A stretch of 64,000 nucleotides of DNA from Oscillospiraceae bacterium (lineage in GTDB: Bacteria; Bacillota; Clostridia; Oscillospirales; Oscillospiraceae), in NCBI GenBank assembly GCA_902778665.1, contig CACYYN010000001.1:1-64000 (forward strand), given 5' to 3'. Below, in pieces: positions 3,107-44,324 of the stretch. Below the pieces are notes generated by a model. That model saw nothing but the letters and a program-made list of their open reading frames with translations. It was not told where the DNA came from and did not search any database. A program made the translations under genes and the position numbers. Within the stretch, counting starts at the first letter, position 1; every line of letters starts with the position of its first letter.

Positions 3107-3922
3107 CTAAATCACAACAGCGTTTTTCATTCCTCTCACCAGAAATAGGGGCGTTGATGAGAAATTCAGCTTTTCCCCCTCTGACCAGACGTGCTGCCAG
3201 ATTTCCTCGTCTGCTTCCGTCTGGAGACCGATTCTCTCCAGATACGTAAGATCCCAGGCGGGGCGGCGTATGTTGGAGAGTGGCATGCGGCGGGCGATGT
3301 CTTCCATCACGTCAAAGTTTTCTCCAACATTCTGATCCCACACACCCTGTTCGGCACTGTTGATCCGATCCCGGTCATAGGCGGCCTGTGCCTCGTCATC
3401 GAAGAGGTAGGCGTACCAGTTAGCGTCAAAGTTCAGGAGTAGCCCGCCCGGCTTTAAAACTCGCACCCATTCGTTATAGGCTTCCTCGGGATGAGGCAGG
3501 TTCCAGGTCAGGTTGCGGCTGACCACCACATCGAAGCTCTCATCCGCAAAAGTCATCTGCTCCGCATTCATCTCCATCCAGAGTATTTCGCCGGCAAGTG
3601 TGCCGGCGTTTCTCTTAGCCTCGGCAAGCATGGCAGGGGTCAGGTCGATGGCCGTCACGGCATAGCCCAGTTCACGCAGGAGAATGGCAAAGAAGCCCGG
3701 GCCTGTGCCCACCTCCAGCACACGCAGGGTTTCCGTCGGGCGATCTCGAAACTGCCGCGTGATCTCGCCATGGAGACAGGTGCGCCACTTCTGTCGTTGG
3801 GCGGTGACAAGTTCCAGCCGGTTGACATCAGAGTAGCCGGCCGCACGGCCGGTCCAGTAAGATTTATTTTCAGAAAGAATTGTTGGTTCGTACACTGTAG
3901 CTCTCCATCTGGCCTTTCTCAT
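3107..3922 (-). CDS. Class I SAM-dependent methyltransferase (transporter-linked, copy 1)
   Basis: A 271-residue Rossmann methyltransferase. The SAM-binding motif I is VLEVGTGPGFF (res. 68-78), the acidic strand is AIDLTPAMLAEAKRNAG, and the post-motif is RVLKPGGLLLNFDANWY (154-170). RNLTWNLPHPEEAY (136-149) and RRPAWDLTYLERIG are shared almost word for word with the second methyltransferase inside the ABC operon, so the two are paralogues. The gene is divergent from the ABC importer, and its promoter is a near mirror image of the importer promoter. The ATG at 3922 sits behind AGGGGG. The substrate is unknown; the context suggests a small molecule handled by the importer, possibly a metal ligand. 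Confidence 0.82.
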   Translation of the reverse strand: MRKARWRATVYEPTILSENKSYWTGRAAGYSDVNRLELVTAQRQKWRTCLHGEITRQFRDRPTETLRVLEVGTGPGFFAILLRELGYAVTAIDLTPAMLAEAKRNAGTLAGEILWMEMNAEQMTFADESFDVVVSRNLTWNLPHPEEAYNEWVRVLKPGGLLLNFDANWYAYLFDDEAQAAYDRDRINSAEQGVWDQNVGENFDVMEDIARRMPLSNIRRPAWDLTYLERIGLQTEADEEIWQHVWSEGEKLNFSSTPLFLVRGMKNAVVI

Positions 3923-3961
3923 TACGTCCCCCTGCTTTGCCCGTCAAATCCCGGAAATGCA

Positions 3962-3996
3962 TTGCGCCCTGCGATTGTCCAAAACGCAGGGCGCAA
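3962..3996 (-). other. Stem-loop in the methyltransferase leader
   Basis: A perfect 12-bp inverted repeat (TTGCGCCCTGCG and its complement) with an 11-base loop. It lies between the minus-strand promoter and the start codon of copy 1. No T-run follows, so it is not a plain terminator. It could affect message stability or translation. Confidence 0.55.
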
Positions 3997-4041
3997 GCAG
4001 GAGAGAGATGAGTTGAGAAATTTGATATCTAATCTGTCTGC

Positions 4042-4070
4042 AGTGTAGCATGACGTGTATTCTCTTGCAA
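4042..4070 (-). promoter_or_regulatory. Promoter of methyltransferase copy 1
   Basis: Minus strand: TTGCAA (4065-4070), 17 bases, TACACT (4042-4047). The -35 box overlaps the outer part of the left C/G palindrome. Confidence 0.65.
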
Positions 4071-4087
4071 GCCCCCCCGGGGGATAT
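4064..4087. promoter_or_regulatory. Left C-tract/G-tract operator
   Basis: Plus strand: CTTGCAAG, seven C, five G, ATAT. Its complement matches the right-hand site almost base for base. The pair lies head to head about 63 bases apart. C-run/G-run palindromes flanked by AT resemble operators of CsoR/RcnR-type metal sensors; that link is inference. Confidence 0.65.
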
Positions 4088-4150
4088 AATCGAAGCTTTT
4101 TTATAATATCCCTCACGGAGAGGTTTCCCGTGTTGTTTTTTCACCCGTTC

Positions 4151-4174
4151 ATATCCCCCCGGGGGGCTTGTAAG
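4151..4174. promoter_or_regulatory. Right C-tract/G-tract operator
   Basis: Plus strand: ATAT, six C, six G, CTTGTAAG. The TTGTAA within it is the -35 box of the importer promoter, so a bound protein would touch RNA polymerase directly, as on the other side. Confidence 0.65.
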
Positions 4175-4196
4175 AGAAGTTCCCGGCGGCTAAAAT
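4168..4196 (+). promoter_or_regulatory. Promoter of the ABC importer operon
   Basis: TTGTAA (4168-4173), 17 bases, TAAAAT (4191-4196). The start codon follows within about 18 bases of the -10 box, so the leader is very short. Confidence 0.65.
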
Positions 4197-4213
4197 ATAC
4201 TCAGGTGAGAGAT

Positions 4214-5155
4214 ATGAAAAAATATGTCATTCAAAGATTTATCCAACTGATCCCGGTTTTGATCGGGATCACCTTTCTGTCCTTTGCCATGATGCGCATG
4301 GCAGGCAGCGACGCCATTACGGAGCTGTACGGCGACAAAGGCGCAGTCGCCCAGGAGGTTATTGATGCCAAGCGTGCGGAGCTGGGGCTCGACAGACCCT
4401 TCCTGACGCAGTATTTCTCCTGGTTGGGCGGCATGCTCACAGGTGACATGGGAAAAAGCTACGTCTCCGGACGCGATGTTTTCAAAACCTTTACCTCCAA
4501 GCTCCCGGCAACGCTGCTGCTGACGGCGCTCTCTATCGTGGCAACAATCGTGATATCTATCCCACTGGGCATTCTGGCTGCTGTGCGGCATGACAGACTG
4601 ACCGACTATTTACTGCGCTTTCTGAGTTTTATCGGCAACTCTCTTCCGAACTTCTTTGTGGCAATGCTCCTGATGGAATTGCTGGCCATCAAGCTGGGCT
4701 GGTTGCCGGTCATCTCCAACGGGACCACTGTGCGCAGCGCCATCATGCCCACACTGACCCTCGCCATCGCTATGTCTGCAAAATACATGCGACAGGTACG
4801 AGCGACAGTATTGGAGGAGTTGAACAAAGACTATGTGGCCGGTGCGCATGCTCGCGGCGTCCGTAATCGTGTGATCCTCTGGAGGAGCGTCATCAAGTCC
4901 TCTATGCTCACCATCATTACTCTGCTGGCTCTCTCCATCGGCAGTCTTCTCGGCGGCACGGCTATCATTGAGAGCATCTTCATGTGGGACGGCGTGGGCA
5001 AGCTCGCCGTGGATGCAATCACTATGCGCGACTACCCGCTGATTCAATCCTATGTGGTTTGGATGGCGATCATCTATGTGTTGGTGAACCTGATCACTGA
5101 CCTGCTGTATCACGCGCTCGATCCGCGAATTCGACTGGGGGTGAGCGAGGGATGA
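4214..5155 (+). CDS. ABC importer permease, NikB/DppB/CntB type
   Basis: A 313-residue integral membrane protein. It opens with MKKYVIQRFIQLIPVLIGITFLSFAMMRMAGSD, the usual first membrane segment of this family. The family loop LGLDRPFLTQYFSWLGGMLTGDMGKSY and the coupling-helix region HARGVRNRVILWRSVIKSS, which docks on the ATPases, both follow. The open frame extends 159 bases further upstream through the promoter and operators, but the ATG at 4214 follows AGGTGAGAG and matches the family start. It overlaps the next permease by 4 bases (ATGA). The family moves nickel, nickel-opine complexes, dipeptides or oligopeptides; the cargo cannot be read from the permease. Confidence 0.9.
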   Translation: MKKYVIQRFIQLIPVLIGITFLSFAMMRMAGSDAITELYGDKGAVAQEVIDAKRAELGLDRPFLTQYFSWLGGMLTGDMGKSYVSGRDVFKTFTSKLPATLLLTALSIVATIVISIPLGILAAVRHDRLTDYLLRFLSFIGNSLPNFFVAMLLMELLAIKLGWLPVISNGTTVRSAIMPTLTLAIAMSAKYMRQVRATVLEELNKDYVAGAHARGVRNRVILWRSVIKSSMLTIITLLALSIGSLLGGTAIIESIFMWDGVGKLAVDAITMRDYPLIQSYVVWMAIIYVLVNLITDLLYHALDPRIRLGVSEG

Positions 5156-6003
5156 GTGAACCGACGATTCGGATTCAAAAAATCAAAAAGGACACCGTCA
5201 AGACCCGGCTCATTATTTTCGGGATCCTCGCGTTAATCCTCCTGTTCTGCTCTGTTTTCTGTGAGCACCTGACACCTTACGATCCTTATCTGCAGGATCT
5301 GAAAAACGCCAAGGCACCGCCCTCTCCTGAGCATCTCTTCGGTACAGACCGCTACGGCCGTGACATGCTCTCCCGCGTCATCGTCGGCAGCAAAACAAGC
5401 ATTTTCTCCACCCTCCTGCTGGTGGGTATCGTTACCGTCCTCGGCACCATGGTGGGAGTTTTCTGCGGCTGGCACGGCAAGTGGATCGATACCGTGCTCA
5501 TGCGTATTTCAGATATGTTTCTGGCATTTCCCGGCCTTGTGTTTGCTATGGCTGTAGCGGGCGTTCTGGGAGGAGGACTGCAGAATGCGATTATTGCACT
5601 GGTGGCTATCTCCTGGCCGAAATATGCCCGCATTGCCCGCAGTCAGACTCTTGCCCAGAAGGAGACGCCTTATCTGAAAGCCGCGAGGCTTTCCGGCAGT
5701 GGTACCTGGAAGATCATCTTCAAGCATATCCTTCCGAATATTGTCGGGCCCATTTTTGTTACCTCCATGCTGGATATCGGCACTATGATGATGGAACTGG
5801 CGGGATTGAGCTTCCTTGGCCTCGGCGCCAAGCCCCCTACAGCAGAGTGGGGCAGCATGATGAGCGATGCGCGCAGCCTCCTGTCCTCCGTGCCTTGGGT
5901 TACGCTGGCTCCCGGCTTCGCAATCTTCGTCTCTGTCATGATCTTCAACCTTCTGGGCGATACCATCCGGGACTATGCCGATCCAAAGTCAAGAGGTCGT
6001 TGA
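5152..6003 (+). CDS. ABC importer permease, NikC/DppC/CntC type
   Basis: A 283-residue partner permease. The periplasm-side motif PPSPEHLFGTDRYGRDMLSRVIVGSKTS near residues 62-85 is diagnostic for the DppC/NikC family. The EAA-type coupling segment ETPYLKAARLSGSGTWKIIFKHILPNIVGP and the C-terminal PTAEWGSMMSDAR...W...PG.AIF are also present. It is translationally coupled to the preceding permease and runs straight into the first ATPase gene. Confidence 0.92.
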   Translation: MSEPTIRIQKIKKDTVKTRLIIFGILALILLFCSVFCEHLTPYDPYLQDLKNAKAPPSPEHLFGTDRYGRDMLSRVIVGSKTSIFSTLLLVGIVTVLGTMVGVFCGWHGKWIDTVLMRISDMFLAFPGLVFAMAVAGVLGGGLQNAIIALVAISWPKYARIARSQTLAQKETPYLKAARLSGSGTWKIIFKHILPNIVGPIFVTSMLDIGTMMMELAGLSFLGLGAKPPTAEWGSMMSDARSLLSSVPWVTLAPGFAIFVSVMIFNLLGDTIRDYADPKSRGR

Positions 6004-6004
6004 T

Positions 6005-6784
6005 ATGGCAGAAATACTGAAATACGAACACGTAGACATTTCCTATAACGGCGAAAGAGTGATTAAGGACGTAAGCTTCACGGTGAATGAAGGAGAGATT
6101 CTCGGCATTGCGGGGGAGTCGGGTTCCGGCAAATCCACGTTGATCAAAGCAGCCATGGGCCTGCTGGGCCCGACCGGCCTTGTCACCCGTGGAGATATCT
6201 GGTATAAGGGCAGAAATCTGCCTGACCTGTCCGCCAGGGAAATCCGGAAGCTCAACGGCCCTGAGCTGGGTATGATCTTCCAATATGCCGGCAGCTCTTT
6301 CTGTCCCATCCGCACCGTTGGCGCCCAGCTCTACGAGAGTATGACCGAACACGAGAGCGTCTCCAGACCGATATTTCAGACTCGTGCGGTGGAACTGCTG
6401 CAGAAGATCGGATTTGAAAACGGACAGAGAATTCTGGACAGCTTTCCCTTTGAACTATCTGGCGGTATGCAGCAGCGTGTGGGCATCGCGGCAGCTATGC
6501 TCTTGAACCCCGGCATTCTCCTAGCGGATGAGCCCACCTCGGCCTTGGATGTTTCCGTGCAGAAGCAGGTGGTGGAGGAGATGCTGCTGGTGCGCAAGAC
6601 CTTTGGGACAGCCATCGTCCTTGTCACCCACAATATCGGCGTTATCAGTGCAATGGCAGACAGGGTGCTGGTTATGCGAAACGGAGAGATGGTGGAACAA
6701 GGTGAAACCCGGCAGGTTCTGGAGGATCCCAAAGAGGAATACACCCGGACGCTTATGTCCTCCGTTCCGAGATTGCGGAGGTGA
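6005..6784 (+). CDS. ABC importer ATPase, NikD/DppD type
   Basis: A 259-residue ATPase. Walker A is GESGSGKST, the signature is LSGGMQQRV, Walker B is ILLADEPTSALD, and the switch histidine is in VTHNIGV. The Q-loop is MIFQYAGSSFCPIRTVG. The C-terminus ends with VEQGETRQVLEDPKEEYTRTLMSSVP, as usual for peptide/nickel family ATPases. The ATG at 6005 begins one base after the upstream stop codon; a longer in-frame start inside the permease is unlikely. It forms a heterodimer with the next gene product. Confidence 0.92.
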   Translation: MAEILKYEHVDISYNGERVIKDVSFTVNEGEILGIAGESGSGKSTLIKAAMGLLGPTGLVTRGDIWYKGRNLPDLSAREIRKLNGPELGMIFQYAGSSFCPIRTVGAQLYESMTEHESVSRPIFQTRAVELLQKIGFENGQRILDSFPFELSGGMQQRVGIAAAMLLNPGILLADEPTSALDVSVQKQVVEEMLLVRKTFGTAIVLVTHNIGVISAMADRVLVMRNGEMVEQGETRQVLEDPKEEYTRTLMSSVPRLRR

Positions 6785-6789
6785 AGCGT

Positions 6790-7557
6790 ATGGATCAGGC
6801 AATTTTGAAAGTCGATAATCTCACCAAAGTTTTCAGCCGCAAGGGCAAACCGGACTTCACCGCCGTGGACCACATCAGCTTTACCATGCATCCGGGCGAG
6901 TGTGTTGGCCTTATCGGGGAGAGCGGAAGCGGCAAGACCACTGTGGTCAACATGATAACCCGCCTGCTGGATCCTACCGAGGGCAGCATCATCCTGGGTG
7001 GGGAGGATATCACCCGCTTCAGTGGCAGAGAACTGCGAAAGGTTTACGCCAGAATGCAGATGGTGTTCCAGACACCGACAGATTCCTTCGATCCCCGCTG
7101 TACCCTTGGCGACGGCATCGGTGAAAGCCTTCGAAATAACGGGTGGTCGCGCAAAGAGACCAAAGACGAGGTGACGCGTCTGCTTGAGATGTGCGGTCTC
7201 AGCGCCGACTTTGCCTCCCGCTACCCCCATCAGGTCAGCGGCGGCCAGTGCCAACGTGCGGCCATCGCCCGTGCTCTTGCCATCAAGCCCAGGCTTTTAA
7301 TCTGTGATGAAGCCACATCCTCTCTGGATGTGACTATCCAAAAGGAGATCATTGCTCTGTTAAATAAGCTGCGATGGGAGAAAGGCAGCGATCTCTCAAT
7401 TCTGTTTATTTGCCATGATATTGCACTGGTGCAGCAGTTTTGCAATCGGGTGCTGGTGCTTTACAAGGGTAAGATCGTTGAACAGGGCGAGCCGGACGAA
7501 GTCATCCGCAACCCACAGGATCCATACACCAGGCATCTGATTGATTCAATTTTGTGA
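6790..7557 (+). CDS. ABC importer ATPase, NikE/DppF type
   Basis: A 255-residue ATPase with Walker A GESGSGKTT, Q-loop MVFQTPTDSFDPR, signature VSGGQCQRA and Walker B LLICDEATSSLDV, with alanine where proline is usual (DEAT rather than DEPT). The start is ATG at 6790, 8 bases after GGAGG; a GTG at 6781 is in frame but overlaps the ribosome site. The ending GEPDEVIRNPQDPYTRHLIDSIL is typical of the family. It pairs with the preceding ATPase. Confidence 0.92.
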   Translation: MDQAILKVDNLTKVFSRKGKPDFTAVDHISFTMHPGECVGLIGESGSGKTTVVNMITRLLDPTEGSIILGGEDITRFSGRELRKVYARMQMVFQTPTDSFDPRCTLGDGIGESLRNNGWSRKETKDEVTRLLEMCGLSADFASRYPHQVSGGQCQRAAIARALAIKPRLLICDEATSSLDVTIQKEIIALLNKLRWEKGSDLSILFICHDIALVQQFCNRVLVLYKGKIVEQGEPDEVIRNPQDPYTRHLIDSIL

Positions 7558-7568
7558 GAGGGAAAAAC

Positions 7569-8294
7569 ATGGAACCGATTAAGCAGCGCATCACCCATTA
7601 CTGGGCCCACAGGGCGGAGGCCTTTCAGACTCAGCGCATCCGGGAATTTGAAGACGAAAAACACGTGCGTTGGTTGGAGGAATTCAACCGCTACATTCCT
7701 CATGACCGCACCCTTCGTGTGCTTGATCTGGGGACGGGTACGGGTTTTTTTGCTTTTGTCTTTGCCGCTGAGGGGCATGAAGCCATCGGCATCGACCTGA
7801 CACCCGACATGATCGAGCGGGCTAGGGAAACCATAGACATCCTCGGCCTGGATGCCACCTTCCGTATTATGGATGCAGAGCACCCGGAATTTGAGCCGGA
7901 GAGTTTCGATGTTCTGGTTACCCGCAATCTTACGTGGACGCTGCCCCATCTGACGGAGGCATACCGGGAGTGGTATAAGCTCCTGAAACCGGGCGGAGTA
8001 CTGATCAACTTTGACGCGGATTACTACAGCGCGCTGGAGCAGGCAGAGGAGGTCGAGCTGCCGGAAAACCACGCCCACAAACTGGTTCCGGAATACATGA
8101 AGGCAGAGAATGACGCCATCACCACGGAAGTCGGAGCCTACCAGATGCCGCGACCTCAATGGGATGTGCAACTGTTGGTGGAGGCTGGCTTTGAGCGCAT
8201 TTCAGTGGACATGGGTGTCTACAGGCGAATCTACCGGGAGATCGACGAGTTTTACAACCCTACGCCGATCTTCACCATTGCGGCGTATAAATGA
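7569..8294 (+). CDS. Class I SAM-dependent methyltransferase (in the importer operon, copy 2)
   Basis: A 241-residue methyltransferase with motif I VLDLGTGTGFF (51-61), IDLTPDMIERARE, RNLTWTLPH (119-127) and LLKPGGVLINFDADYY (138-153). It shares RNLTW.LPH, LKPGG...NFDA and RP.WD...L...G with copy 1, but its N-terminus and middle insert differ, so the two may methylate different positions or substrates. It lies 11 bases after the second ATPase and before the binding-protein gene, clearly within the importer operon. The ATG at 7569 was preferred over an earlier GTG because it follows GAGAGGG. Metallophore or opine modification is possible but unproven. Confidence 0.82.
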   Translation: MEPIKQRITHYWAHRAEAFQTQRIREFEDEKHVRWLEEFNRYIPHDRTLRVLDLGTGTGFFAFVFAAEGHEAIGIDLTPDMIERARETIDILGLDATFRIMDAEHPEFEPESFDVLVTRNLTWTLPHLTEAYREWYKLLKPGGVLINFDADYYSALEQAEEVELPENHAHKLVPEYMKAENDAITTEVGAYQMPRPQWDVQLLVEAGFERISVDMGVYRRIYREIDEFYNPTPIFTIAAYK

Positions 8295-8302
8295 GCCAAA
8301 AA

Positions 8303-8343
8303 GCGACTGTTCTGAAAGCCCTGACAAAGCACAGAACAGCCGC
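8303..8343 (+). other. Intercistronic hairpin before the binding-protein gene
   Basis: GCG-x-CTGTTCTG pairs with CAGAACAG-x-CGC around a 17-base loop, directly behind the methyltransferase stop. There is no T-run. Such hairpins often protect or separate the message for a highly expressed binding protein. Confidence 0.45.
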
Positions 8344-8444
8344 CTAAGGAAACTGGCGAGCGGCGGAGTATCCGCTTCTGCCGCCTCCAGTATAAAAGAT
8401 TTTGCGGAAACAAGCAAGAAAAAAGAAAAATGGAGGAAAAAACC

Positions 8445-9977
8445 ATGAAGAAACTGTTGTCTCTGGCGCTGATCCTGATCCTGATGCTCAGCTTTCTCTC
8501 GGCTACCGCCTCGGCGGAGGTGAAAAAGATGATTATCGGCGACACCACCTTCAACGCGGAAAACTGGGAAGAGACCATCGACCCGCACCGCACCTACAAC
8601 GGCTGGCCCTGCATCCGCTACGGTGTGGGTGAAACCCTGGTGCACTATACCGACACTATGGAGCTGGAGCCCTGGCTTGCCACCGACTGGTCGAACGACG
8701 GCGGCAACACCTGGACTGTCGTGCTGCGTGACGGCGTGAAATTTTCCAGCGGCCGCGACATGGACGCCGAGGCTGTCAAACAGTGCTTTGAGCATCTGCT
8801 TGAGAACCATGATCGCGCTCCTGGCGACACCAGAATCGTGAGTATGGATGCAGACGGGCAGGTGCTGACGATCGTCACTTCCGAACCGAACCCTGCCTTA
8901 ATGAACTACCTGGGCGATCCCTACGCCTGCATCATCGATGTGGATGCCTCTGATTTCGATACAGGCATCTCCGTCGGCACCGGCCCTTACAAAGCAGTCG
9001 ATATGCTGATGGACGATCACATTACCCTGGTTCCCAACGAGTTCTACTGGGATGGCACCCCCAAACTCGATGAGCTGACGATTCGCACCATCTCCGACAG
9101 AAACACGCTGGCCCTGGCTCTGGAGGGTGGAGAGATTGATGCGGCCTACGGCGTTGCTTATGACGCCTACTCCAAGTTTGAAAATCCCAACTACCGGTTC
9201 TCCAGCATCCAGACCTCCCGCGCTTTCTTCGGTTGCATGAACATGCAGAGCGCCATCATCCAGGATCCGGCTGTGCGTCAGGCCATTGTCATGGGTATTG
9301 ACCGTGAGGGCTTCGTTGTCGCCCTGCTGGACGGCCACGGCGTTCCCGGGTACGGCCCCTTCCCTGAGGGCTTCAGCACCTTTGGCAGCGAACATCTCAA
9401 TACTTTGGGGTATGATCCCGATGGGGCGAAAGCCGTTCTGGAGGAGGCCGGTTGGATCGATAGCGACGGAGATGGCATCCGCGAGAAGGACGGTCAGAAA
9501 CTTACGATTCGTTGGCTGACCTATCCCAGCCGTGCAGAACTGCCCCTGCTGGCTGAGTCTGCCCAGGCGTCCCTAAAGGACATTGGCATCGATGTGGACA
9601 TTAATAATACTGCCAACCGCCGGGAGTTCCTGGCCACCATGGATTTTGACGTCTATGCTTCCGCTCTCGTGACCGCCCCCTCCGGCGACCCGCAGTACTT
9701 TTTCACCACCAGTTGTGTTCCCGGCATGAGCTACAACTTTGGCGCATATGAAAACGAGCACGTGAATGACTTGCTCCATCAGCTGTCAACCGAGTTTGAC
9801 ACCGCTAAGCGTTCCGAGCTTGCCATCGAGCTGCAGCAGACCATTCTGGACGACAACGGCTACGTCTTCTGCTCCTTCCTGGAGATGAGCATGATTTCCA
9901 AGGCCAATGTTTCCAACTGGAATGCCCACGCCTGCGACTATTACGAGGTCACTGTTGATCTCGACATCGATAACTAA
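8445..9977 (+). CDS. ABC importer substrate-binding protein, family 5 (NikA/CntA/DppA type)
   Basis: A 510-residue extracytoplasmic solute-binding protein. Residues 1-24 are a signal peptide ending ATASA before EVKK; no lipobox cysteine is seen, unusual for a Gram-positive binding protein. Family 5 landmarks are ETLVHYTDTMELEPWLATDWSNDGGNTWTVVLRDGVKFSSG, VGTGPYKAVDM and DPAVRQAIVMGIDRE. NikA and CntA resemble this region as much as peptide-binding proteins do, so cargo is open. It is the last gene of the operon, behind GGAGG, after a 150-base gap with a hairpin. Its 3' end faces the glycyl-radical activase gene 33 bases away, without a clear terminator between them. Confidence 0.88.
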   Translation: MKKLLSLALILILMLSFLSATASAEVKKMIIGDTTFNAENWEETIDPHRTYNGWPCIRYGVGETLVHYTDTMELEPWLATDWSNDGGNTWTVVLRDGVKFSSGRDMDAEAVKQCFEHLLENHDRAPGDTRIVSMDADGQVLTIVTSEPNPALMNYLGDPYACIIDVDASDFDTGISVGTGPYKAVDMLMDDHITLVPNEFYWDGTPKLDELTIRTISDRNTLALALEGGEIDAAYGVAYDAYSKFENPNYRFSSIQTSRAFFGCMNMQSAIIQDPAVRQAIVMGIDREGFVVALLDGHGVPGYGPFPEGFSTFGSEHLNTLGYDPDGAKAVLEEAGWIDSDGDGIREKDGQKLTIRWLTYPSRAELPLLAESAQASLKDIGIDVDINNTANRREFLATMDFDVYASALVTAPSGDPQYFFTTSCVPGMSYNFGAYENEHVNDLLHQLSTEFDTAKRSELAIELQQTILDDNGYVFCSFLEMSMISKANVSNWNAHACDYYEVTVDLDIDN

Positions 9978-10010: not shown

Positions 10011-10859
10011 TCATCGAAACACTTTGTATGGAATCCCCGCATCATCAAATACGTTGAGAAAGTACCGGGGAGGGACAGCCTCATCGAATTCAGGGGAATA
10101 ATCTCTGCCGACCATGCTGTATTTGGCTCCTGCTGCCCTCTGATACGGCAAAATGTCAATCCGGAGCAGCGTCTTTGCGTCCTTCACAATCTCTGCTGCA
10201 GTTTGAAAATGTTCCTCTGTGTCATTCACACCCGGGATGATTGGCATACGAAGGATAAATGGCGTCTCTCCGGCGGCAAGCATCTCGGCGTGACGTCGAA
10301 TGGGAGCCTGGTCCACACCGGTGTAATATCTGTGTTTTTCAGGGTCAGAGACTTTCCAGTCCATCATGATAAGATCCAGAGTTCCCATCGCCTGACGGAA
10401 TATTTCATCGTTTGTGTAACCGCTGGTTTCTATAGCTGTGTTTATGCCTTTCAAACGGCTGATCACTTCAGAGACAAAATCCCACTGCATCAGAGGCTCC
10501 CCTCCGGAGAAGGTAACCCCGCCGCCGGACATCTGATACACGTCTGCATCACGCTGCAGTCTTTCTGCCAGCGCTTCCGCAGTCCAGATCGTGCCTGCAA
10601 TCTTTCGCAGTCCCAGCCTGCAGTACGGTACGCACACTCCGCAGGCAATGCAATTGTCAGGGTGCTTGCAGACTCTGCTGCAGGCACCGCAATGTACGCA
10701 TGATGCGGAGGAAACCATAAGTTGGGGTTTCGGAGACAACCCTTCCGGATTGTGGCACCACTGGCAGCGAAGCGGGCACCCTTTGAGAAATACCGTTGTG
10801 CGGATGCCAGGTCCGTCAAAAACGGCGAACTCTTTAATGTCAAATACGGTACCCGTCAT
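10011..10859 (-). CDS. Glycyl radical enzyme activase (radical SAM)
   Basis: A 282-residue radical SAM protein. The SAM cluster motif is GCPLRCQWCHNPEG (C-x3-C-x2-C). An inserted ferredoxin-like domain follows with CVHCGACSRVC and CIACGVCVPYC, enough cysteines for two further 4Fe-4S clusters, as in activases of non-PFL glycyl radical enzymes. GGGVTFSGGEPLMQ and IETSGYT are family-typical. It would abstract hydrogen from the C-terminal glycine of the enzyme encoded immediately upstream; the two genes overlap by 4 bases (ATGA). It needs anaerobic conditions. Confidence 0.93.
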   Translation of the reverse strand: MTGTVFDIKEFAVFDGPGIRTTVFLKGCPLRCQWCHNPEGLSPKPQLMVSSASCVHCGACSRVCKHPDNCIACGVCVPYCRLGLRKIAGTIWTAEALAERLQRDADVYQMSGGGVTFSGGEPLMQWDFVSEVISRLKGINTAIETSGYTNDEIFRQAMGTLDLIMMDWKVSDPEKHRYYTGVDQAPIRRHAEMLAAGETPFILRMPIIPGVNDTEEHFQTAAEIVKDAKTLLRIDILPYQRAAGAKYSMVGRDYSPEFDEAVPPRYFLNVFDDAGIPYKVFR

Positions 10860-12883
10860 GACAGAAGCAGCTCAGCCCTGCGGATGATATGGTCCTGGTA
10901 GCACTTGTCCAGTTCCACGAAGTAACCGCTCCAGCCCCATACCCGCACAATCAGATTGCGGTAGTTTTCCGGATGCTTTTGTGCATCCAGCAGTCGCTCC
11001 CGGTTGACAGTGTTCAGCTGCAGCTGGTGTCCTCCGCGCAGGATAAACAGCTGTACCAGCTGTGCTACCTTGGTGATGGCTTCATCCTGCGAAAACACAC
11101 TTTCCGAGAATTCAATGGTCAGAGGGCCGCCGTTAATGGTGCGTTTCAGATCTGGTTTGGAAAAGCTCTTGATCAGCGATACGGGCCCGTTTAGCCGGAT
11201 GTTCAGAGAAGGGGAGTAGTTGGCTGGCAGCGGCACACCTGCTTCGCGGCCGTCAGCCGTGGCTCCCAACTCTTGCGCATGGAAGATGTAAAACATGGCA
11301 GAACCGGTGCCTGCACGGATAATGCCCCCGCGTTCATTGTGAAGGCCTTCCACGGCATCTGCAAAGGTATTCAGCAGCCAGCTGAGGTATTCATCAGCCT
11401 GATCGTCGTCATTCCCGGCTTTCGGGCAGTGGTATTTCAGCCTGTCATGCAGAGGTTCATAGCCGACGAAGTCTGCGTCCATAGCTTGGAGAAGCTCCTC
11501 GGCGGATGTACCCTCCCGGAATATCACCTGATCTACAGCGGCCAGCATATCTGCCGCCGGAGCGACTCCTGTTCCGTGGAGTCCCCAGTTGTTGTATTTG
11601 CAGCCCAGAGAGATATCCTTCTCCTTTTCAAGGCATCCTTCAAAAAACAGAGAAAGATAGGGGGAGGGAATCACATACAGGTTCCTGCGTTCTTCCAGAA
11701 TCCTCCGCACCTCTGCAAAGATCTCCTGCCGGATGGCTGCTTTCAGTTCTTTCATGGAGTGCAGCTTCTGAAGCTGCTCATGCAGGACTTTGTCCACAAC
11801 GTTGGCGAAGGGCAACGCTCCGATATTGACGATGTCCATGGCCTTACCCGGAATAATGAATTCCCAGCATGCCGCCATCACATAGGACCGTGCATCCCCC
11901 TCTTCATATCCCAGTGCCATAAGGCCGGGGATCGCCACGTCGTCATTTTCATACTGCGGGAATCCCAGCCCCAGCTTCGTCAGTCTTGTGCCCTTCTCGT
12001 ATACAGAGAGGGGCGTTTTGCTGTTTACGCGCAGGTTGATCTTTGGGTCAATCAGCCGCAGTTCTCCCGATGCCTTGAGGCACCATTCAGAGAGAATATT
12101 GAAACCGTCGCTTCCGTCAGGCAGCATACCGCCCAGCACCATGCTCTGGCCGTTGTCTCCCTGCTGCATTCCGGGATAGAGGTCGCTGTCTCGGTTGCAG
12201 CTCAGAAAGAAGGCTTCCAGCAGTTCAAATGCGCTCTCCTCAGTCTCACGCCCTGCGGCGAGATCTGCCTTCAGATAGGGGAGCATATACTGGTCAAAAC
12301 GTCCCAGTGTGTTGTGATAATCTCCTTCACACCACATGGCGTAATGCAGAATCCGGAGAGACTGCAGCGCCTCGCGAAATGTTCTCGGAGAATACGCAGG
12401 CACCTGCGCCAGTGTGTCGGCAATCTCTGTGAGGCCTTTGGCACGGGCGGCCTCTTCATAGCGGCTGGTAAGATGAAGCACTGCATCAATTGACCGGCGC
12501 ATTGCCCGGTGATAATCGCTGTCTGTCAGCTTATCCCGCAGAGAAGCAAGGCCTTCGGCAATCACAGTGCCGTAATCCGGAGAGAGGTTGCTCACATTCC
12601 CCAGCTCGTGAATATAATGCTCTTTCGTAATAGCTGACCATTCTTCCTCATCATAGATTCGCGGCAGGTTCGGCACCGTGCGGGTAAAGGCGATCAGCTC
12701 CTGCGGAAAGAAATATGGTTCTTCCGTTTCCAGCGCCTGCTCTAACCGCAAAGCAGTCCGGGCATAATCGGGGAGTGCATTGTCCCGATATCGAAGATGC
12801 AGATCTTCCGGCAGGAAAGTACGGGCAGTATGGTGCTTATGCTCCCATTGAAACTGCCTCATAGCCTGAATGCGGTCCGTCAT
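10856..12883 (-). CDS. Glycyl radical enzyme of unassigned reaction
   Basis: A 675-residue PFL-superfamily enzyme, shorter than PFL or the diol dehydratases. The C-terminal radical loop is LIVRVWGWSGYFVEL with Gly650; the usual RVxGYxA is RVWGWSG here. The mid-chain thiyl site is AACWEFIIPG, with Cys339 and Glu341 two residues on. The C-x-E spacing is shared with dehydratases and C-N/C-S lyases of the family, but not PFL's Cys-Cys pair. PYLSLFFEGCLEKEKDI and HQLQLNTVNRERLLDAQKHPE are also family landmarks. The substrate cannot be assigned: the CWE and WGW sequences do not match PFL, choline lyase, glycerol, propanediol or hydroxyproline dehydratases as I know them. It has its own strong promoter and no microcompartment genes nearby. 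Confidence 0.88.
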   Translation of the reverse strand: MTDRIQAMRQFQWEHKHHTARTFLPEDLHLRYRDNALPDYARTALRLEQALETEEPYFFPQELIAFTRTVPNLPRIYDEEEWSAITKEHYIHELGNVSNLSPDYGTVIAEGLASLRDKLTDSDYHRAMRRSIDAVLHLTSRYEEAARAKGLTEIADTLAQVPAYSPRTFREALQSLRILHYAMWCEGDYHNTLGRFDQYMLPYLKADLAAGRETEESAFELLEAFFLSCNRDSDLYPGMQQGDNGQSMVLGGMLPDGSDGFNILSEWCLKASGELRLIDPKINLRVNSKTPLSVYEKGTRLTKLGLGFPQYENDDVAIPGLMALGYEEGDARSYVMAACWEFIIPGKAMDIVNIGALPFANVVDKVLHEQLQKLHSMKELKAAIRQEIFAEVRRILEERRNLYVIPSPYLSLFFEGCLEKEKDISLGCKYNNWGLHGTGVAPAADMLAAVDQVIFREGTSAEELLQAMDADFVGYEPLHDRLKYHCPKAGNDDDQADEYLSWLLNTFADAVEGLHNERGGIIRAGTGSAMFYIFHAQELGATADGREAGVPLPANYSPSLNIRLNGPVSLIKSFSKPDLKRTINGGPLTIEFSESVFSQDEAITKVAQLVQLFILRGGHQLQLNTVNRERLLDAQKHPENYRNLIVRVWGWSGYFVELDKCYQDHIIRRAELLLS

Positions 12884-16741: not shown

Positions 16742-19700
16742 TTATTTAAAATACTGTACTGCCGCTTCAAACATGCGGATATCGTAGTTGCCCGGAACGT
16801 TGCGGTAAAGTCCACTGCCGATGCGTTCGGAATGGCCCATTTTGCCGAAAACGCGCCCGTCTGGCGAGGTGATGCCTTCCACACCGAAGATGGAGCCGTT
16901 CGGGTTGAAATGAACATCCGCGCTGACGTTCCCCTCCAGGTCGACATACTGTGTGGCAATCTGTCCGTTGGCAGCAAGCGTACGGACCAGTTCCTCGCTT
17001 GCGAGGAAGCGCCCCTCACCGTGGGAGATCGGAACACTGTAGATCTCTCCAACCTCAGTGAGCGACAGCCAGGGGGATTTGTTCGAGGCAATGCGCGTGC
17101 GTACAATGCGGGACTGGTGCCGCCCGATTCGGTTAAATGTTAGTGTCGGGCTGTCAGCATCTGTATTCACAATTCTGCCGTAGGGCACAAGGCCAAGCTT
17201 AATGAGCGCCTGGAAGCCGTTGCAGATGCCGCACATCAGTCCGTCGCGACGATCCAGCAGCTCTGTTACGCCATCCTTGACGGCAGCGGAGCGGAAGAAA
17301 GCCGTTATGAATTTGCCGGAACCGTCCGGCTCATCTCCGCCGGAAAAACCTCCCGGGATAAAAACGATCTGTGATTCCTTCAGCAGCGCAGCAAAACGGT
17401 CCACACTTCTGGCAATACCATCGGAAGAGAGATTGTTGATAATCAGGATCTCCGGCTCGGCACCCGCATCACTGACCGCTTTTGCACTGTCATATTCGCA
17501 GTTTGTACCCGGGAAAACCGGGATCAGCACCCTTGGTCTGGCATTTTTCACCGTCGGAGAAGGCCATACGGATGTACAGCAGGAAAAAGCGTCTGTATGA
17601 GAATCGGAATCCGGGATATTGCAGGAATAAACCGGTTCAAGCCGACCTTCATAAAGCGCAAGCAGTTCTGCGAGCGACACGCTCTCGGATCCCAGCGAAA
17701 ACTTCCTGTCGTCTGTAATCGAGCCGAGGCATTCAGCATCCGGGATCGTCTCAGCGGATTCAAGCAGAAAAGCACCGTAATCATATCGGAAGAGCGTCTC
17801 TACCGACAACCCGGGTTCAAAGCGGAAGCCCAGGCCGTTGCCGATACACATTTTGAAAACAGCTTCCGCAATCCCTCCTATGCCGGGCGTGTAACAGGCA
17901 ACTGCCATGCCTTTGCGCTGCAGAAGAGTAATCCGGTCGAAAAGGGCAAGGAGAGAGCACGCCAGAGGAAGACCGTCAGCGCCGTAATCCGGTGCGAGAC
18001 GATAGAGCTTGTGTCCGGCACGTTTGCATTCCGGAGATACAATGTTTTCAGTTTTCTCCGTGGTGACTGCAAAGGAGACCAGGGTCGGCGGTACGTCGAG
18101 CTGCTCAAAACTGCCGCTCATCGAATCTTTTCCCCCGATTGCTCCGACTCCGAGCTCCATCTGTGCCCGGAATGCACCGAGCAGCGCCGCGAGCGGTTTG
18201 CCCCAGCGTTTCGGATCTTTGCCGAGGCGTTCAAAGTATTCCTGGAAACTCAGATAGACGTCGTTATATGCACTTCCCGAAGCGACCAGCTTGCAGATTG
18301 ATTCCACCACCGCAAGGTAGGCCCCGTGATAGGGGCTTTTTTCTGCAACATAGGGGTTATATCCCCATGCCATCAGAGAGCAGCTGTCGGTGTGATTTTT
18401 CTCCATTGAAATGTTCTGCACCATGGCCTGAACGGGCGTCAGCTGGTATTTTCCGCCGAATGGCATCAGGACCGTTCCCGCACCGATCGTGGAATCAAAG
18501 CGTTCCGACAAACCGCGTTTTGAGCAGCAATTCAAATCGGAGACAGTGGCACGGAGGTTTTCGGCAAAGTTTCCGGATATCGTTTTCGTATAATCCTGAG
18601 GTGCGGCTACTTCAGCGGTTGTGTGTTTGCTTGCTCCGTTCGTATCGAGAAAAGCACGGCTGAGATCCACAATCGTCACGCCGTTCCACCGCATTCTGAG
18701 GCGAGGCTCCGCTGTGACTACAGCCACCGGGCAGGCCTGCAGATTTTCTCCTTTTGCAAGAGCGAGGAACGCATCCACATTCTCTTTCTCTATGACGACT
18801 GCCATGCGCTCCTGTGATTCGCTGATGGCAAGTTCCGTTCCGTCGAGTCCCTCATACTTCCGGGGAACCTGATTGAGGTCAATATCCAATCCATCGGCAA
18901 GCTCTCCGATGGCAACGGACACTCCGCCTGCACCGAAGTCATTGCATCGCTTGATGAGTCGGCAGGCATCCCCGTTTCGGAAGAGGCGCTGTAGCTTGCG
19001 TTCCTCGGGAGCATTGCCTTTCTGCACCTCGGCTCCGCAGGTTTCCACGGAATGGACATTGTGTGCCTTTGAAGAACCTGTTGCTCCGCCGATGCCATCA
19101 CGTCCGGTGCTCCCGCCGAGGAGAATCACCACATCTCCCGGCTCCGGTCGCTCCCGCCGTACGTTTTCCGCAGGGGCAGCCGCAATGACCGCACCGATTT
19201 CCATCCTCTTTGCAGCGTAACCGGGGTGATAGAGTTCGTCCACAATACCGGTCGCAAGCCCGATCTGGTTGCCATAGGAGGAATAGCCCGCCGCAGCAGT
19301 CGTGACGAGCTTTCGCTGCGGGATCTTACCCGGGATTGTCTCGCTCACGGGAACAGTCGGGTCGGCGGCACCTGTAACACGCATAGCGCCGTAGACATAA
19401 GCCCGTCCCGACAGGGGATCCCGAATAGCTCCGCCGATACAGGTAGCAGCACCGCCGAAGGGTTCGATTTCAGTGGGATGGTTGTGTGTCTCATTTTTGA
19501 ACAGCAGCAGCCAGGGTTCGGCCTTTCCGTCAGCGTTGACCGTGATCTTCACCGTACAGGCATTGATCTCCTCGCTCTCGTCCAGTTTATCAAGCTTTCC
19601 GGTTTTGCGAAGAAATCGGACCGCAAGTGTTGCCAGATCCATAAGGCATACCGCTTTTGTACGCCCTAGCTCCTCCCGGGTGCGGAGATAGTCCTCATAG

Positions 19701-20431
19701 GTGTTCTGCAGCAGTGCATCCTCAAAGCGGACGCTGTCGATAACCGTGTTGAATGTGGTGTGACGGCAGTGATCTGACCAGTATGTGTCAAGGACTCTCA
19801 GTTCCGTGATGGTAGGCTCACGCTGTTCCGTGCGGAAATACGCCTGGCAGAAAGCCAGGTCATCCGCATCCATGGCAAGCCCGTAGCGGAGAACAAAGCC
19901 TTCGAGTTCTGCGATATCCATAGAGGTAAAACCTGCCAGGGTTTCGACACCGGTGGGAATGGTGTAGCGCAGGGAGAGCGTTTCTGGTTTGCCCAAAGAG
20001 GCCTCCCGCGCTTCTACGGGATTGATAACGTATTTCCTGATCTCTGCCAGCTCTTCAGCTCCGAGAGATCCGTAAAGTGCATAGACCTTTGCCGAGCGCA
20101 CCAGAGGGCGTTCTCCCTGAGAAAGAATCTGGATACACTGGGCGGCAGAGTCTGCCCGCTGATCGAACTGTCCGGGGAGATATTCCACTGCAAAAACCGA
20201 TGCTCCGTCGAGCTCCGGTTCCTCGTACACAAGATCGAGCTGAGGTTCTGAGAAGACTGTGTGCACTGCGTAGTCAAAGAGTTCCCGTCCGATTCCCTCA
20301 ACGTCATAACGGTTGAAAAGCCTCACAGTTTCGAGTGCCTGTATGCCGAGCAGGGATCTGGCGTCATTCAGCAGAGACCGGGCTTCGTTGTCCAGCCCCG
20401 GCTTTTTTTCAACATAAATCCGATAAACCAT
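16742..20431 (-). CDS. purL: Phosphoribosylformylglycinamidine synthase, single-chain
   Basis: A 1229-residue one-piece FGAM synthase with an N-terminal PurS-like region, two AIRS-like halves ([20 protein letters not shown], then [19 protein letters not shown] and [14 protein letters not shown]), and a C-terminal glutamine amidotransferase. Its nucleophile is in [18 protein letters not shown] and its His/Glu pair in SHGEGRF. It converts FGAR, glutamine and ATP to FGAM. The ATG at 20431 ([17 protein letters not shown]) matches the family start; the 57 extra in-frame residues upstream lie inside purD. It nearly abuts the purD stop. Confidence 0.96.
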
Positions 20432-20432
20432 C

Positions 20433-21701
20433 TTAAGCCTCTTTCGCTGCCATAGCTTTTGCGCCGATATCCCGGCGGCAGAATTTGTTTTCAAAACGGA
20501 CCTGATCCGCGATCTTATAGGCATTCCGGACTGCCTCAGACAGTGTTTCCGCAATCGCCGTGCAGCCCACGACGCGCCCGCCGTTTGTGACGAGTCTGCC
20601 ATCCCTAACAGCGGCTCCTGCTACATAGACTTTATCCTGCACACTTTCAGGGATCTCCAGAGGGAATCCCTTTTCGTAATGTTCCGGATACCCCTTAGAG
20701 GCTAAAATCACACAGCACGCGTGTTTGTCGCTGAAGCGTACCTCCGTATCTGCAAGGTGTTCTTCGGTCACGGCACGCATCACTGTCAGCAGATCACTCT
20801 CCAGCAGCGGAAGCACAACCTGTGCTTCCGGGTCGCCGAAGCGGCAGTTGTATTCGATCACCTTCGGCTCGTTCTTCGTAATCATCAATCCAAAGTACAG
20901 GCAGCCTTTAAAACGTCGGCCCTCTGCATTCATTGCCCGGATCGTCGGAAGGAAGATCTCTTCCATACAGCGCTCTGCGATCTCCTTCGTATAATACGGA
21001 TTCGGAGCTACAACGCCCATGCCTCCCGTATTGAGGCCTTCATCCCCGTCGAGTGCACGCTTGTGATCCATGGAAGACACCATGGGAATAAGCGTTTTTC
21101 CGTCTGTAAAAGCCAGCACAGAGACCTCCGGCCCTTCCAGATATTCCTCGATCACCACGTGCTCACCGCTTTTGCCGAATTTGCCGAATTGCATCATGTC
21201 ACTGATAGCCCGGCGAGCCTCTTCCCGGCTGTCGGCAATGATCACCCCTTTGCCGAGGGCCAGACCGTCGGCTTTGATCACCATGGGCAGGGGAGCATCT
21301 TCCGCATACCGAAGTGCATCCTCCGCCGAGCTGAAGGTCTCGAACCGTGCTGTCGGGATATTGTATTTTTTCATGAGGTTCTTGGAAAAGACCTTACTGC
21401 CCTCAATGATCGCCGCATCCGCACGCGGGCCGAAGCAGGGAATACCTGCCGCCTCCAATGCGTCCACACAACCGAGTACCAGCGGATCATCCGGCGTCAC
21501 AACGGCATAGTCGATTCTGTTCTCCACGGCAAAAGCCTGAATGGCCGGGATATCCTTTGCACTGATGTTGATGCACGAGGCATCCGCAGAGATCCCGCCG
21601 TTTCCGGGGAGTGCGAAAATCTCTGTGACCTCCGGGTTCTGTTTCAGTTTTTTGATAACGGCGTGCTCACGTCCGCCGCCTCCAACGACCAGAAGCTTCA
21701 T
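20433..21701 (-). CDS. purD: Phosphoribosylamine-glycine ligase
   Basis: A 422-residue ATP-grasp enzyme for the second step of purine synthesis. The start MKLLVVGGGGREHAVIKKL, then LPMVIKADGLALGKGVIIAD, the central GLNTGGMGVVAPNPYYT and the metal-binding FGDPEAQVVLPLL are classic PurD landmarks. ATG follows GGAGGAG. It lies between the AICAR formyltransferase gene and purL in the operon. Confidence 0.96.
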   Translation of the reverse strand: MKLLVVGGGGREHAVIKKLKQNPEVTEIFALPGNGGISADASCINISAKDIPAIQAFAVENRIDYAVVTPDDPLVLGCVDALEAAGIPCFGPRADAAIIEGSKVFSKNLMKKYNIPTARFETFSSAEDALRYAEDAPLPMVIKADGLALGKGVIIADSREEARRAISDMMQFGKFGKSGEHVVIEEYLEGPEVSVLAFTDGKTLIPMVSSMDHKRALDGDEGLNTGGMGVVAPNPYYTKEIAERCMEEIFLPTIRAMNAEGRRFKGCLYFGLMITKNEPKVIEYNCRFGDPEAQVVLPLLESDLLTVMRAVTEEHLADTEVRFSDKHACCVILASKGYPEHYEKGFPLEIPESVQDKVYVAGAAVRDGRLVTNGGRVVGCTAIAETLSEAVRNAYKIADQVRFENKFCRRDIGAKAMAAKEA

Positions 21702-21716
21702 TCCCGCTCCTCCGTA

Positions 21717-22895: not shown

Positions 22896-22898
22896 GTT

Positions 22899-25787: not shown

Positions 25788-25790
25788 GGG

Positions 25791-27901: not shown

Positions 27902-27933
27902 GAGTTCTTCTCCTTTATAAAAATTAGGGGTTC

Positions 27934-28422: not shown

Positions 28423-28434
28423 ATCGCACTCCTT

Positions 28435-41862: not shown

Positions 41863-41879
41863 AAGTAATAAATTTTTAA

Positions 41880-42371
<492 letters not shown>

Positions 42372-42395
42372 CAGATCCGCATTGAGAGGTAGCTT

Positions 42396-42980: not shown

Positions 42981-43005
42981 TCATCCCGAAAAGGGAGGGA
43001 AAAAA

Positions 43006-44311: not shown

Positions 44312-44324
44312 GGAGTATTACCAT

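What the first reader, a model, noticed from the sequence alone, without database searches (positions are those of the whole stretch)
3107..9977. Nickel/opine-type ABC importer with two paralogous methyltransferases
Seen: a complete importer (two permeases, two ATPases, binding protein) with one methyltransferase inside the operon and a second, related one divergently transcribed. The two share RNLTW.LPH, LKPGG...NFDA and RP.WD, yet differ at their N-termini and inserts. Known: NikABCDE and CntABCDF transporters of this family take up nickel or metal-opine complexes made by dedicated enzymes. Inference: the methyltransferases modify a small ligand before or after import, making this a candidate metallophore or scavenging system distinct from staphylopine.
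Basis: partly seen in the sequence, partly recalled or inferred. Interest (0 to 1): 0.75.

Follow-up and report, generated by a model that had tools for sequence, protein, structure and literature searches.

The report
Nickel importer with paired methyltransferases
A gut bacterium carries a nickel-type importer together with two dedicated methyltransferases under one metal-type switch, a set also found in many relatives and in Proteus, which makes them candidate enzymes for the still unknown helper molecule that carries nickel into cells.

Summary
In detail: 3107-9977 encodes MTase-A (divergent), NikB, NikC, NikD, NikE, MTase-B and a NikA-like binding protein; the methyltransferases are 35% identical. 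The association is not chance. Of the 80 most similar loci in named genomes, 65 adjoin an importer; in 299 phylum genomes drawn evenly, 19 of 28 MTase loci adjoin Nik-like or FecCD genes. A and B are separate clades, tandem in 36 of 80 and fused, often with an AstE-type hydrolase, in 16 of 80. Context points to nickel: Proteus nikABCDE, a hydrogenase maturase, LarC. Best reading: a nickel-starvation regulon whose methyltransferases modify the chelator carrying nickel, slightly more likely maturing a nickelophore than unloading one. Substrate, metal response and direction are unproven; cobalt is not excluded.

The parts
3107..3922 (-). MTase-A: class I SAM-dependent methyltransferase, divergent from the operon
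   Evidence: Pfam Methyltransf_11 E 7.5e-24; 35% identical to MTase-B; in the A clade of 93 sequences
4042..4086 (-). operator and promoter of MTase-A: operator TATCCCCCGGGGGGGCTTG 4068-4086, -35 TTGCAA 4065-4070, 17-bp spacer, -10 TACACT 4042-4047 (minus strand)
   Evidence: sequence; motif in the genome and family; promoter spacing in relatives. Not tested by experiment
4152..4196 (+). operator and promoter of the nik operon: operator TATCCCCCCGGGGGGCTTG 4152-4170, -35 TTGTAA 4168-4173, 17-bp spacer, -10 TAAAAT 4191-4196
   Evidence: sequence; motif in the genome and family
4214..5155 (+). NikB-type permease (ORF listed from GTG 4055; ATG 4214 likely start)
   Evidence: NCBIfam NF045470 Opp2B 353.1 bits, cut-off 350
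5152..6003 (+). NikC-type permease
   Evidence: NCBIfam NF045474 Opp2C 318.1 bits, cut-off 300
5975..6784 (+). NikD-type ATPase
   Evidence: ABC_tran; CntF, CntD and NikD models best, below cut-offs
6781..7557 (+). NikE-type ATPase
   Evidence: ABC_tran; OppF, GsiA and NikE models best, below cut-offs
7554..8294 (+). MTase-B: class I SAM-dependent methyltransferase overlapping the NikE gene by 4 bp
   Evidence: Pfam Methyltransf_31/25/11; in the B clade of 55 sequences
8430..9977 (+). NikA-like extracellular binding protein
   Evidence: SBP_bac_5 E 1.4e-73; PDB 3T66 nickel-binding protein E 9.4e-65, then SaNikA 4OFJ and E. coli NikA

Best explanation
This is the chelate-uptake arm of a nickel-starvation regulon. 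An InrS-like member of the CsoR/RcnR family (in this genome at G000:C25:35309-35578) binds a G/C-tract operator that overlaps the -35 box of each promoter and keeps the genes on when nickel is short; by analogy with InrS in Synechocystis this would be activation by the metal-free protein, lost when nickel binds. It drives a NikABCDE-type importer, an ECF CbiM/NikM-type importer, a FecBCD-type importer and the methyltransferases. MTase-A and MTase-B are steps of one cytoplasmic pathway, joined in some lineages by an AstE/DoeB-like hydrolase on the same polypeptide. They methylate the small organic chelator with which nickel travels through the importer. I judge it most likely that they mature a nickelophore before export (about 0.4), less likely that they disarm an imported chelator to free nickel (about 0.3). 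Shown by sequence: gene content, conservation, fusions, operator, co-occurrence of the regulator, nickel context in relatives. Inferred: which metal is sensed, direction of regulation, that the InrS-like protein binds the site, the substrate, and methyl transfer to a ligand.
For: 65 of the 80 best loci are beside an importer: 59 by a fixed rule, of which 40 have a NikB or NikC at least 60% identical to the window's, 13 at 40-59% and 6 below 40%; 6 more by inspection. 19 of 28 non-window loci from 299 phylum genomes adjoin Nik-like or FecCD genes. A and B form two clades, split support 99. A and B are tandem within 400 bp in 36 of 80 loci; fusions A~AstE~B in 8, AstE~B in 7, A~B in 1 of 80. Operator before an MTase gene in 8, 24 and 40 of 80 loci at up to 1, 2 and 3 mismatches; reversed motif 0 each time; 200 shuffles at up to 3 mismatches mean 0.01, maximum 1; 65 of 73 sites have a -10 at the right spacing, against 2649 of 20293 background TTG. 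The motif came from the window's genome before these loci were fetched. InrS-like protein (E<=1e-18) in 27 of 30 motif genomes and 13 of 71 others, Fisher p 1e-11; its gene lies within 60 bp of a site in L179, L062, L120 and L119. NikR 0 of 101. Nickel: Proteus terrae MTaseA-NikABCDE with NikA over TIGR02294 (618.9>393), same order in P. mirabilis; Sutterella cluster followed by HupD (154.2>151.8); LarC between MTaseB and MTaseA in L138. Chelate traffic: FecBCD and a TonB receptor behind MTaseA in L248; a MATE gene in line with the cluster in 5, and beside it under its own operator in 1, of 80.
Against: No substrate is known; the solved methyltransferases found match mainly the Rossmann core. 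No scaffold-building enzyme was recognised. MATE genes are in line in few loci. 15 of 80 loci have no importer nearby, about ten of them with long flanks, and two Selenomonas plasmid copies stand alone. The window's genome has no AstE. NikD, NikE and the binding protein are under all curated cut-offs shown. The FecCD of the regulon is nearest to the vitamin B12 permease BtuC (187 bits, cut-off 334) and the L248 TonB receptor to the B12 receptor (294 bits, cut-off 600), so cobalt or corrinoid uptake may share the regulon; because of this I lowered confidence from 0.60 to 0.58. CsoR-family nickel sensors are mostly known to control efflux (PMC7055735). The 80 loci were chosen by similarity; 'Nik' labels are BLAST hits to the window's genes down to about 25% identity; genomes in the co-occurrence test share ancestry and not every InrS-like hit was checked for its His tract.
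Confidence: 0.58

Rival explanations
1. Unloading: the importer brings in a foreign nickel chelate such as Ni-(L-His)2 and the methyltransferases (with AstE or GNAT enzymes where present) alter donor groups of the ligand so that nickel is released and the ligand cannot rebind it; MATE expels the spent ligand.
For: No scaffold-building enzyme recognised in the clusters; exogenous L-histidine is believed to be a widespread NikA ligand (PMC11091072, passages); a GNAT acetyltransferase lies between NikD and NikA in L241 (Pfam), with look-alike ORFs in L252 and L253 (by eye); AstE is nearest to a deacetylase, DoeB.
Against: Needs two different ancient methyltransferases for one release step; the E. 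coli Nik system works without them (recalled).
Confidence: 0.3
2. The methyltransferases serve a nickel enzyme or cofactor inside the cell (for example a nickel-pincer-like cofactor) and are merely co-regulated with uptake.
For: LarC lies between MTaseB and MTaseA in L138 and, by eye, behind CbiMQO in L053; a protein with a partial Lar_N match over its cut-off is in the window's genome.
Against: In the loci displayed the MTases sit with importers far more often than with a recognised nickel enzyme; no methylation step is known in the pincer pathway (recalled).
Confidence: 0.13
3. The regulon is for cobalt or corrinoids rather than nickel, and the methyltransferases act on a cobalt ligand or corrinoid precursor.
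For: CbiM is named a cobalt uptake family in Pfam; FecCD in C30 is nearest to BtuC and the L248 receptor to a B12 receptor; RcnR-type sensors answer cobalt too (PMC3902906 calls RcnR a Ni/Co regulator).
Against: Proteus NikA over the nickel cut-off, HupD and LarC contexts; nickel permease cut-offs passed in the window; BtuC and BtuB cut-offs not reached.
Confidence: 0.1
4. General housekeeping or detoxifying methyltransferases that hitch-hike in the operon; no link to metal.
For: Class I methyltransferases are very common; 15 of 80 loci stand without an importer; stand-alone plasmid copies.
Against: Operator directly before MTase genes in 40 of 80 loci against 0.01 expected from shuffles; repeated tandem pairs and fusions; association in Bacillota and Pseudomonadota.
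Confidence: 0.07
5. 3-amino-3-carboxypropyl (aminobutyrate) transferases, as nicotianamine synthase-like CntL, rather than methyltransferases, building a metallophore skeleton from SAM.
For: Same cofactor as CntL and a similar operon layout (both recalled for Cnt); enzyme genes before a NikA/CntA-type importer.
Against: The profile search listed 57 PDB sequences, none named nicotianamine synthase or CntL; the Pfam hits are methyltransferase families.
Confidence: 0.06

Closest known systems
NikABCDE nickel importer (E. coli, Staphylococcus aureus, Proteus)
   Same: Two permeases, two ATPases, family-5 binding protein whose best solved relatives are nickel-binding; in Proteus the same MTase-A precedes a NikA over the curated nickel cut-off.
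   Different: One or two dedicated methyltransferases, a G/C-tract operator and no NikR in 101 family genomes; binding protein under curated cut-offs, and the position aligned with E. coli NikA His416 is not His (loop alignment, tentative).
Staphylopine / opine metallophore systems (CntKLM-ABCDF)
   Same: SAM-dependent enzymes encoded with a NikA/CntA-type importer; in a few loci an exporter; in one an outer-membrane receptor. The Cnt layout itself is recalled.
   Different: No staphylopine dehydrogenase over cut-off in 101 family genomes; enzymes are methyltransferase-like; CntA model 129.2 bits against an 800 cut-off.
InrS of Synechocystis (CsoR/RcnR family nickel sensor)
   Same: C-H-C metal residues plus, in six of seven aligned, a clearly His-rich N-terminus; no NikR; [quoted passage not shown] operator resembles the type-2 kind of the family (PMC3902906, passages).
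   Different: Would control three importer types plus methyltransferases here; binding and nickel response not tested.
AstE/AspA family, nearest named member DoeB (N-acetyl-diaminobutanoate deacetylase)
   Same: Catalytic domain PF24827; DoeB model E 1.3e-26 for the L200 protein.
   Different: Far under the DoeB cut-off (93 against 403 bits); in 8 loci fused between two methyltransferases.

Membership tests
NikABCDE-type nickel importer | permeases of the nickel subgroup | tested here: met
   Opp2B 353.1>350; Opp2C 318.1>300
NikABCDE-type nickel importer | binding protein over a curated NikA model | tested here: not met
   NF045468 350.1<600; TIGR02294 189.4<393; nearest PDB entries are nevertheless nickel binders
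NikABCDE-type nickel importer | ATPases over NikD/NikE models | tested here: not met
   NikD 231.4<318.7; NikE 216<332.55
NikABCDE-type nickel importer | transports nickel or a nickel chelate | not testable with these tools
   context in relatives only: Proteus nikABCDE, HupD, LarC
NikR regulon | NikR present | tested here: not met
   PF08753 in 0 of 101 family genomes; 5 of 14 control genomes ring
CsoR/RcnR family, InrS-like regulon | PF02583 protein with Cys-His-Cys and N-terminal His | tested here: met
   own protein L118:3220-3582; C68, H93, C97 invariant in 10 aligned proteins, three of which are CsoR-like without the His tract
CsoR/RcnR family, InrS-like regulon | type-2 operator: two short G/C tracts with 2-4 bases between, AT-rich outside | tested here: met
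   95 distinct sites: atATCCCCCcgGGgGGCTTgtg, the two central positions most variable; the AT-rich flank is good on the left, weaker on the right
CsoR/RcnR family, InrS-like regulon | binds the site and responds to nickel | not testable with these tools
   co-occurrence 27/30 vs 13/71 and neighbourhood only
Staphylopine-type opine metallophore system | opine dehydrogenase | tested here: not met
   PF10100 over cut-off in 0 of 101 (two sub-threshold hits); none of the 14 control genomes rings, so sensitivity was not shown
Staphylopine-type opine metallophore system | nicotianamine synthase-like CntL and racemase CntK | not tested
   none recognised by eye in the clusters
Class I SAM-dependent methyltransferase | Rossmann core with SAM glycine motif and acidic residue | tested here: met
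   Pfam over cut-off; G72, G74, G76, D93 invariant in 39 aligned MTase-A
A named methyltransferase family (UbiE, BioC, CpaM, DVU_1556, ArsM etc.) | score over an equivalog cut-off | tested here: not met
   best 65.5 bits against 180 (MTase-A) and 54 against 575 (MTase-B); best 25 models shown for each

The most novel reading that the evidence does not exclude
MTase-A, the AstE/DoeB-like hydrolase and MTase-B form a dedicated pathway, in some lineages one tri-functional polypeptide, that makes the long-sought bacterial nickelophore for NikABCDE from an ordinary amino-acid-like metabolite; it is exported by a MATE carrier, recovered by Nik or FecBCD (through a TonB receptor where there is an outer membrane) and switched on by a nickel-free InrS-like activator. 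It would run through gut Clostridia and reach Proteus.
Probability: 0.27. Interest if true: 0.87.

Novelty: new variant of a known kind. Interest (0 to 1): 0.63.

Why it matters
[quoted passage not shown] This finding names enzyme genes, an operator, a regulator and an exporter candidate that can be tested directly. A 2009 survey found NikR in less than half of organisms with NikABCDE and inferred NikR-independent control (PMC2667541, passages); the operator and InrS-like protein described here are a concrete candidate for that control in gut Clostridia. Nickel feeds hydrogenase, urease and lactate racemase (established knowledge).

Tried and rejected
NikR control: rejected, 0 of 101 genomes. 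Rfam riboswitch before the operon: none in the window at gathering scores. Staphylopine-type system: rejected. Peptide importer: disfavoured, DppA and OppA relatives score well below nickel binders. The operator as a site after the -10 box: my first reading, dropped when the family sites were lined up and the CTTG end proved to be the -35 box with a -10 about seventeen bases on. A plain RcnR-type sensor: the residue four places after the His is Cys, as in InrS and CsoR (passages; alignment), so the InrS-like label fits better. Named families for the methyltransferases: none over cut-off. Alignment A3 of a fused A~B with single A and B put B on the A half and was not used. Literature: in the listings I saw no paper described as linking these methyltransferases with nickel importers; the listed papers were not all read, and only open PMC papers are held, so this is a weak absence.

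Motif sites judged chance: two of the 30 motif genomes (G026, G056) have the site inside a coding frame by eye; they also lack the InrS-like protein. They were kept in the 30 for the count. Of the 15 loci without an importer, three lie within about 1 kb of a contig end, two more within 2.5 kb, and five of the fifteen carry an operator-like site. One of the 54 loci counted for MTase-B (L137) rests on a weak 28% hit.


Full report
What is there. The window is the first 64 kb of contig 1 of a 2.73-Mb, 79-contig genome, 84% complete. NikB and NikC pass curated cut-offs for 'nickel' permeases; the ATPases and the binding protein fall below every curated cut-off shown. The binding protein's best solved relatives are 3T66 'nickel-binding protein' (E 9.4e-65), S. 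aureus NikA and E. coli NikA; DppA and OppA come much lower. In the alignments the position of E. coli NikA His416 is not His in the window protein (a loop, so tentative; the His416 role is from PMC11091072). MTase-A and MTase-B are 35% identical. No named methyltransferase model in the table is reached.

The pair elsewhere. An alignment of 11 A and B proteins was used for the single scan of the named species genomes. By their titles they are mostly Lachnospiraceae and Oscillospiraceae, with Flavonifractor plautii, Blautia species, Coprococcus catus, Clostridium carboxidivorans, Acetobacterium tundrae, an Eggerthellaceae bacterium, Sutterella wadsworthensis and Proteus terrae. By a fixed rule (at least two of NikB, C, D, E within 8 kb of MTase-A) 59 of 80 have a Nik-like importer and 54 of 80 an MTase-B hit. 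'Nik' here means a BLAST hit to the window's genes: in 40 of the 59 the best NikB or NikC is at least 60% identical, in 13 it is 40-59% and in 6, Proteus among them, below 40%. Of the other 21, six have an importer by inspection: L136, L139 and L140 at a contig end, L138 FecBCD, L165 CbiM, L172 NikB and CbiMQO. Fifteen have none. Because these 80 were picked by similarity, I also drew 299 genomes evenly from the phylum: 25 have a match at E<=1e-35, in 35 places, for which 30 loci were returned. Of the 28 not from the window's genome, 19 have Nik-like or FecCD genes within 1.5 kb. Some of these loci are neighbours in one genome, and at 31-46% identity the A or B label is loose there.

Two enzymes, one pathway. 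148 distinct domains split cleanly into A (93) and B (55) with support 99 (FastTree); labels came from best BLAST hits, so the clean split rather than the labels is the result. A and B lie in tandem on one strand within 400 bp in 36 of 80 loci. In 8 of 80 one frame of 813-866 aa reads A~AstE~B, in 7 AstE~B, in 1 A~B. Stand-alone AstE genes lie between B and A in L127, L128 and L190 and after NikE in L200. The nearest named relative of the L200 AstE is the deacetylase DoeB, far below its cut-off. The window's genome has no AstE, so it is optional.

Other partners. A MATE exporter is in line with the cluster in L143, L150, L151, L176 and L200 and stands under its own operator site near the cluster in L192: 6 of 80. 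In one phylum genome (L248) MTase-A lies between NikABCDE and a FecB, FecCD, FecE, TonB-receptor run; that receptor's best named model is the vitamin B12 receptor, under its cut-off. L241 has a GNAT gene between NikD and NikA, with look-alike ORFs in L252 and L253. LysR genes follow five of the fused A~AstE~B genes.

Which metal. In Proteus terrae MTase-A heads NikABCDE, and that NikA passes TIGR02294 at 618.9 bits against 393. P. mirabilis has the same order, and its Nik system is reported to deliver nickel (review PMC11026637, passages). In Sutterella, MTaseB-MTaseA-NikBCADE is followed about 0.9 kb on by a HyaD/HupD hydrogenase maturase over its cut-off. LarC, the nickel-insertion protein, sits between B and A in L138. 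Against: the FecCD of the regulon resembles BtuC, and Pfam names CbiM a cobalt uptake family, so cobalt is not excluded.

The operator. The 291-bp divergent region holds two near-identical G/C-tract sites. With up to two mismatches the core word CAAGCCCCCCGGGGG occurs at five places in the genome: these two, upstream of a CbiM/NikM-type ECF importer, upstream of a FecCD-type importer whose operon ends in a third class I methyltransferase, and one poorer match; reversed control 0. A second pattern gave the same four and four poorer matches. Of 101 family genomes 30 have the 19-base motif with up to two mismatches and none has the reversed control. Genes below the sites include CbiM, NikA, NikB and FecCD types and all three MTase types. 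By eye the CTTG end is the -35 box of most promoter sites, with a -10 about seventeen bases on. In the 80 named loci a site precedes an MTase gene in 8, 24 and 40 at up to 1, 2 and 3 mismatches; reversed motif 0; 200 letter shuffles at up to 3 mismatches mean 0.01, maximum 1. 65 of 73 sites have the -10 (2 or fewer mismatches, spacer 16-18), against 2649 of 20293 background TTG. The logo of 95 distinct promoter-positive sites is atATCCCCCcgGGgGGCTTgtg. This resembles the published type-2 operators of the CsoR/RcnR family: two short G/C tracts, two to four intervening bases, AT-rich outside (PMC3902906, passages).

The regulator. PF02583 proteins occur in 75 of 101 genomes; those read fall by eye into a Cu-CsoR-like type and a His-rich type. 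The His-rich type lies within 60 bp of a site in L179, L062, L120 and L119, and 232 and 532 bp away in L154 and L072. It has Cys, His and Cys at the CsoR/InrS positions plus, in six of seven aligned, a clear N-terminal His tract. Relatives of the window genome's copy (E<=1e-18) are present in 27 of 30 motif genomes and 13 of 71 others, Fisher p 1.1e-11 (counts tabulated by hand; test; genomes are related, so the p-value is optimistic). The three exceptions are two coding-frame chance sites and one 81%-complete genome. NikR is absent from all 101. InrS is reported to bind upstream of nik in Synechocystis, which lacks nikR, and to enhance its expression (PMC7055735, passages); the position of our sites suits an activator or a repressor covering the -35 box.

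How it probably works. Shown by sequence: co-conservation, fusions, shared promoter architecture, regulator co-occurrence, nickel context in relatives. Inferred: a nickel-free InrS-like protein turns the genes on; the methyltransferases act on the chelator that carries nickel. Enzyme genes ahead of a binding-protein-dependent importer, an occasional MATE gene and, in one genome, a TonB receptor copy the layout of opine metallophore systems (recalled), which is why I put maturation of a nickelophore slightly ahead of unloading an imported chelate. The lack of a recognised scaffold-building enzyme and the scarcity of MATE genes argue the other way.

Novelty. No listing in the searches named in Tried and rejected describes this pairing. 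I class it as a new variant of a known kind: a NikABCDE-type uptake system with dedicated methyltransferases and a NikR-independent operator. The chemistry, if it is a nickelophore pathway, would be new.

Noticed in passing
window 10011-12883 (-): Glycyl radical enzyme (675 aa, PFL-like) with its radical-SAM activase, convergent to the binding protein gene; the enzyme's best NCBIfam models (PFL2-3, hydroxyproline dehydratase) are under cut-off, so its substrate is unassigned.
   Followed up: no
L011 4142-7742 (G000:C30): FecCD-type importer, ATPase, binding protein and a third class I methyltransferase under the same operator: a second chelate importer of the regulon, nearest to BtuC but under its cut-off.
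   Followed up: partly
L010 5576-8340 (G000:C6): CbiM/NikM-CbiQ-CbiO importer under the operator; no methyltransferase of A or B type among its ORFs.
   Followed up: partly
L241 2941-3552; L151 8415-9056; L256 9256-9816: FmdE-family proteins (PF02663) beside MTase-Nik clusters; DUF4198 and Gate-domain proteins also in L241.
   Followed up: no
L240 9210-9911; L244 8138-8836: Similar proteins between MTase-A and NikA in two genomes; the L244 one has a double 4Fe-4S domain (PF13484).
   Followed up: no
L118 upstream of 3220 (G000:C25): The window genome's own InrS-like gene is preceded by a diverged G/C-tract word (6 mismatches to the motif), possibly autoregulation.
   Followed up: partly
L063 6956; L073 3001; L069 3565; L076 3001: Operator-like sites before a (by eye) 5'-nucleotidase-like protein and uncharacterised ORFs in other family genomes; regulon membership unclear.
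   Followed up: no
window 16742-29943 and 39859-47467: Purine genes (FGAM synthase, PurD, AICAR formyltransferase, PurM, IMP dehydrogenase) on the minus strand, and V-type ATP synthase subunits: ordinary.
   Followed up: no
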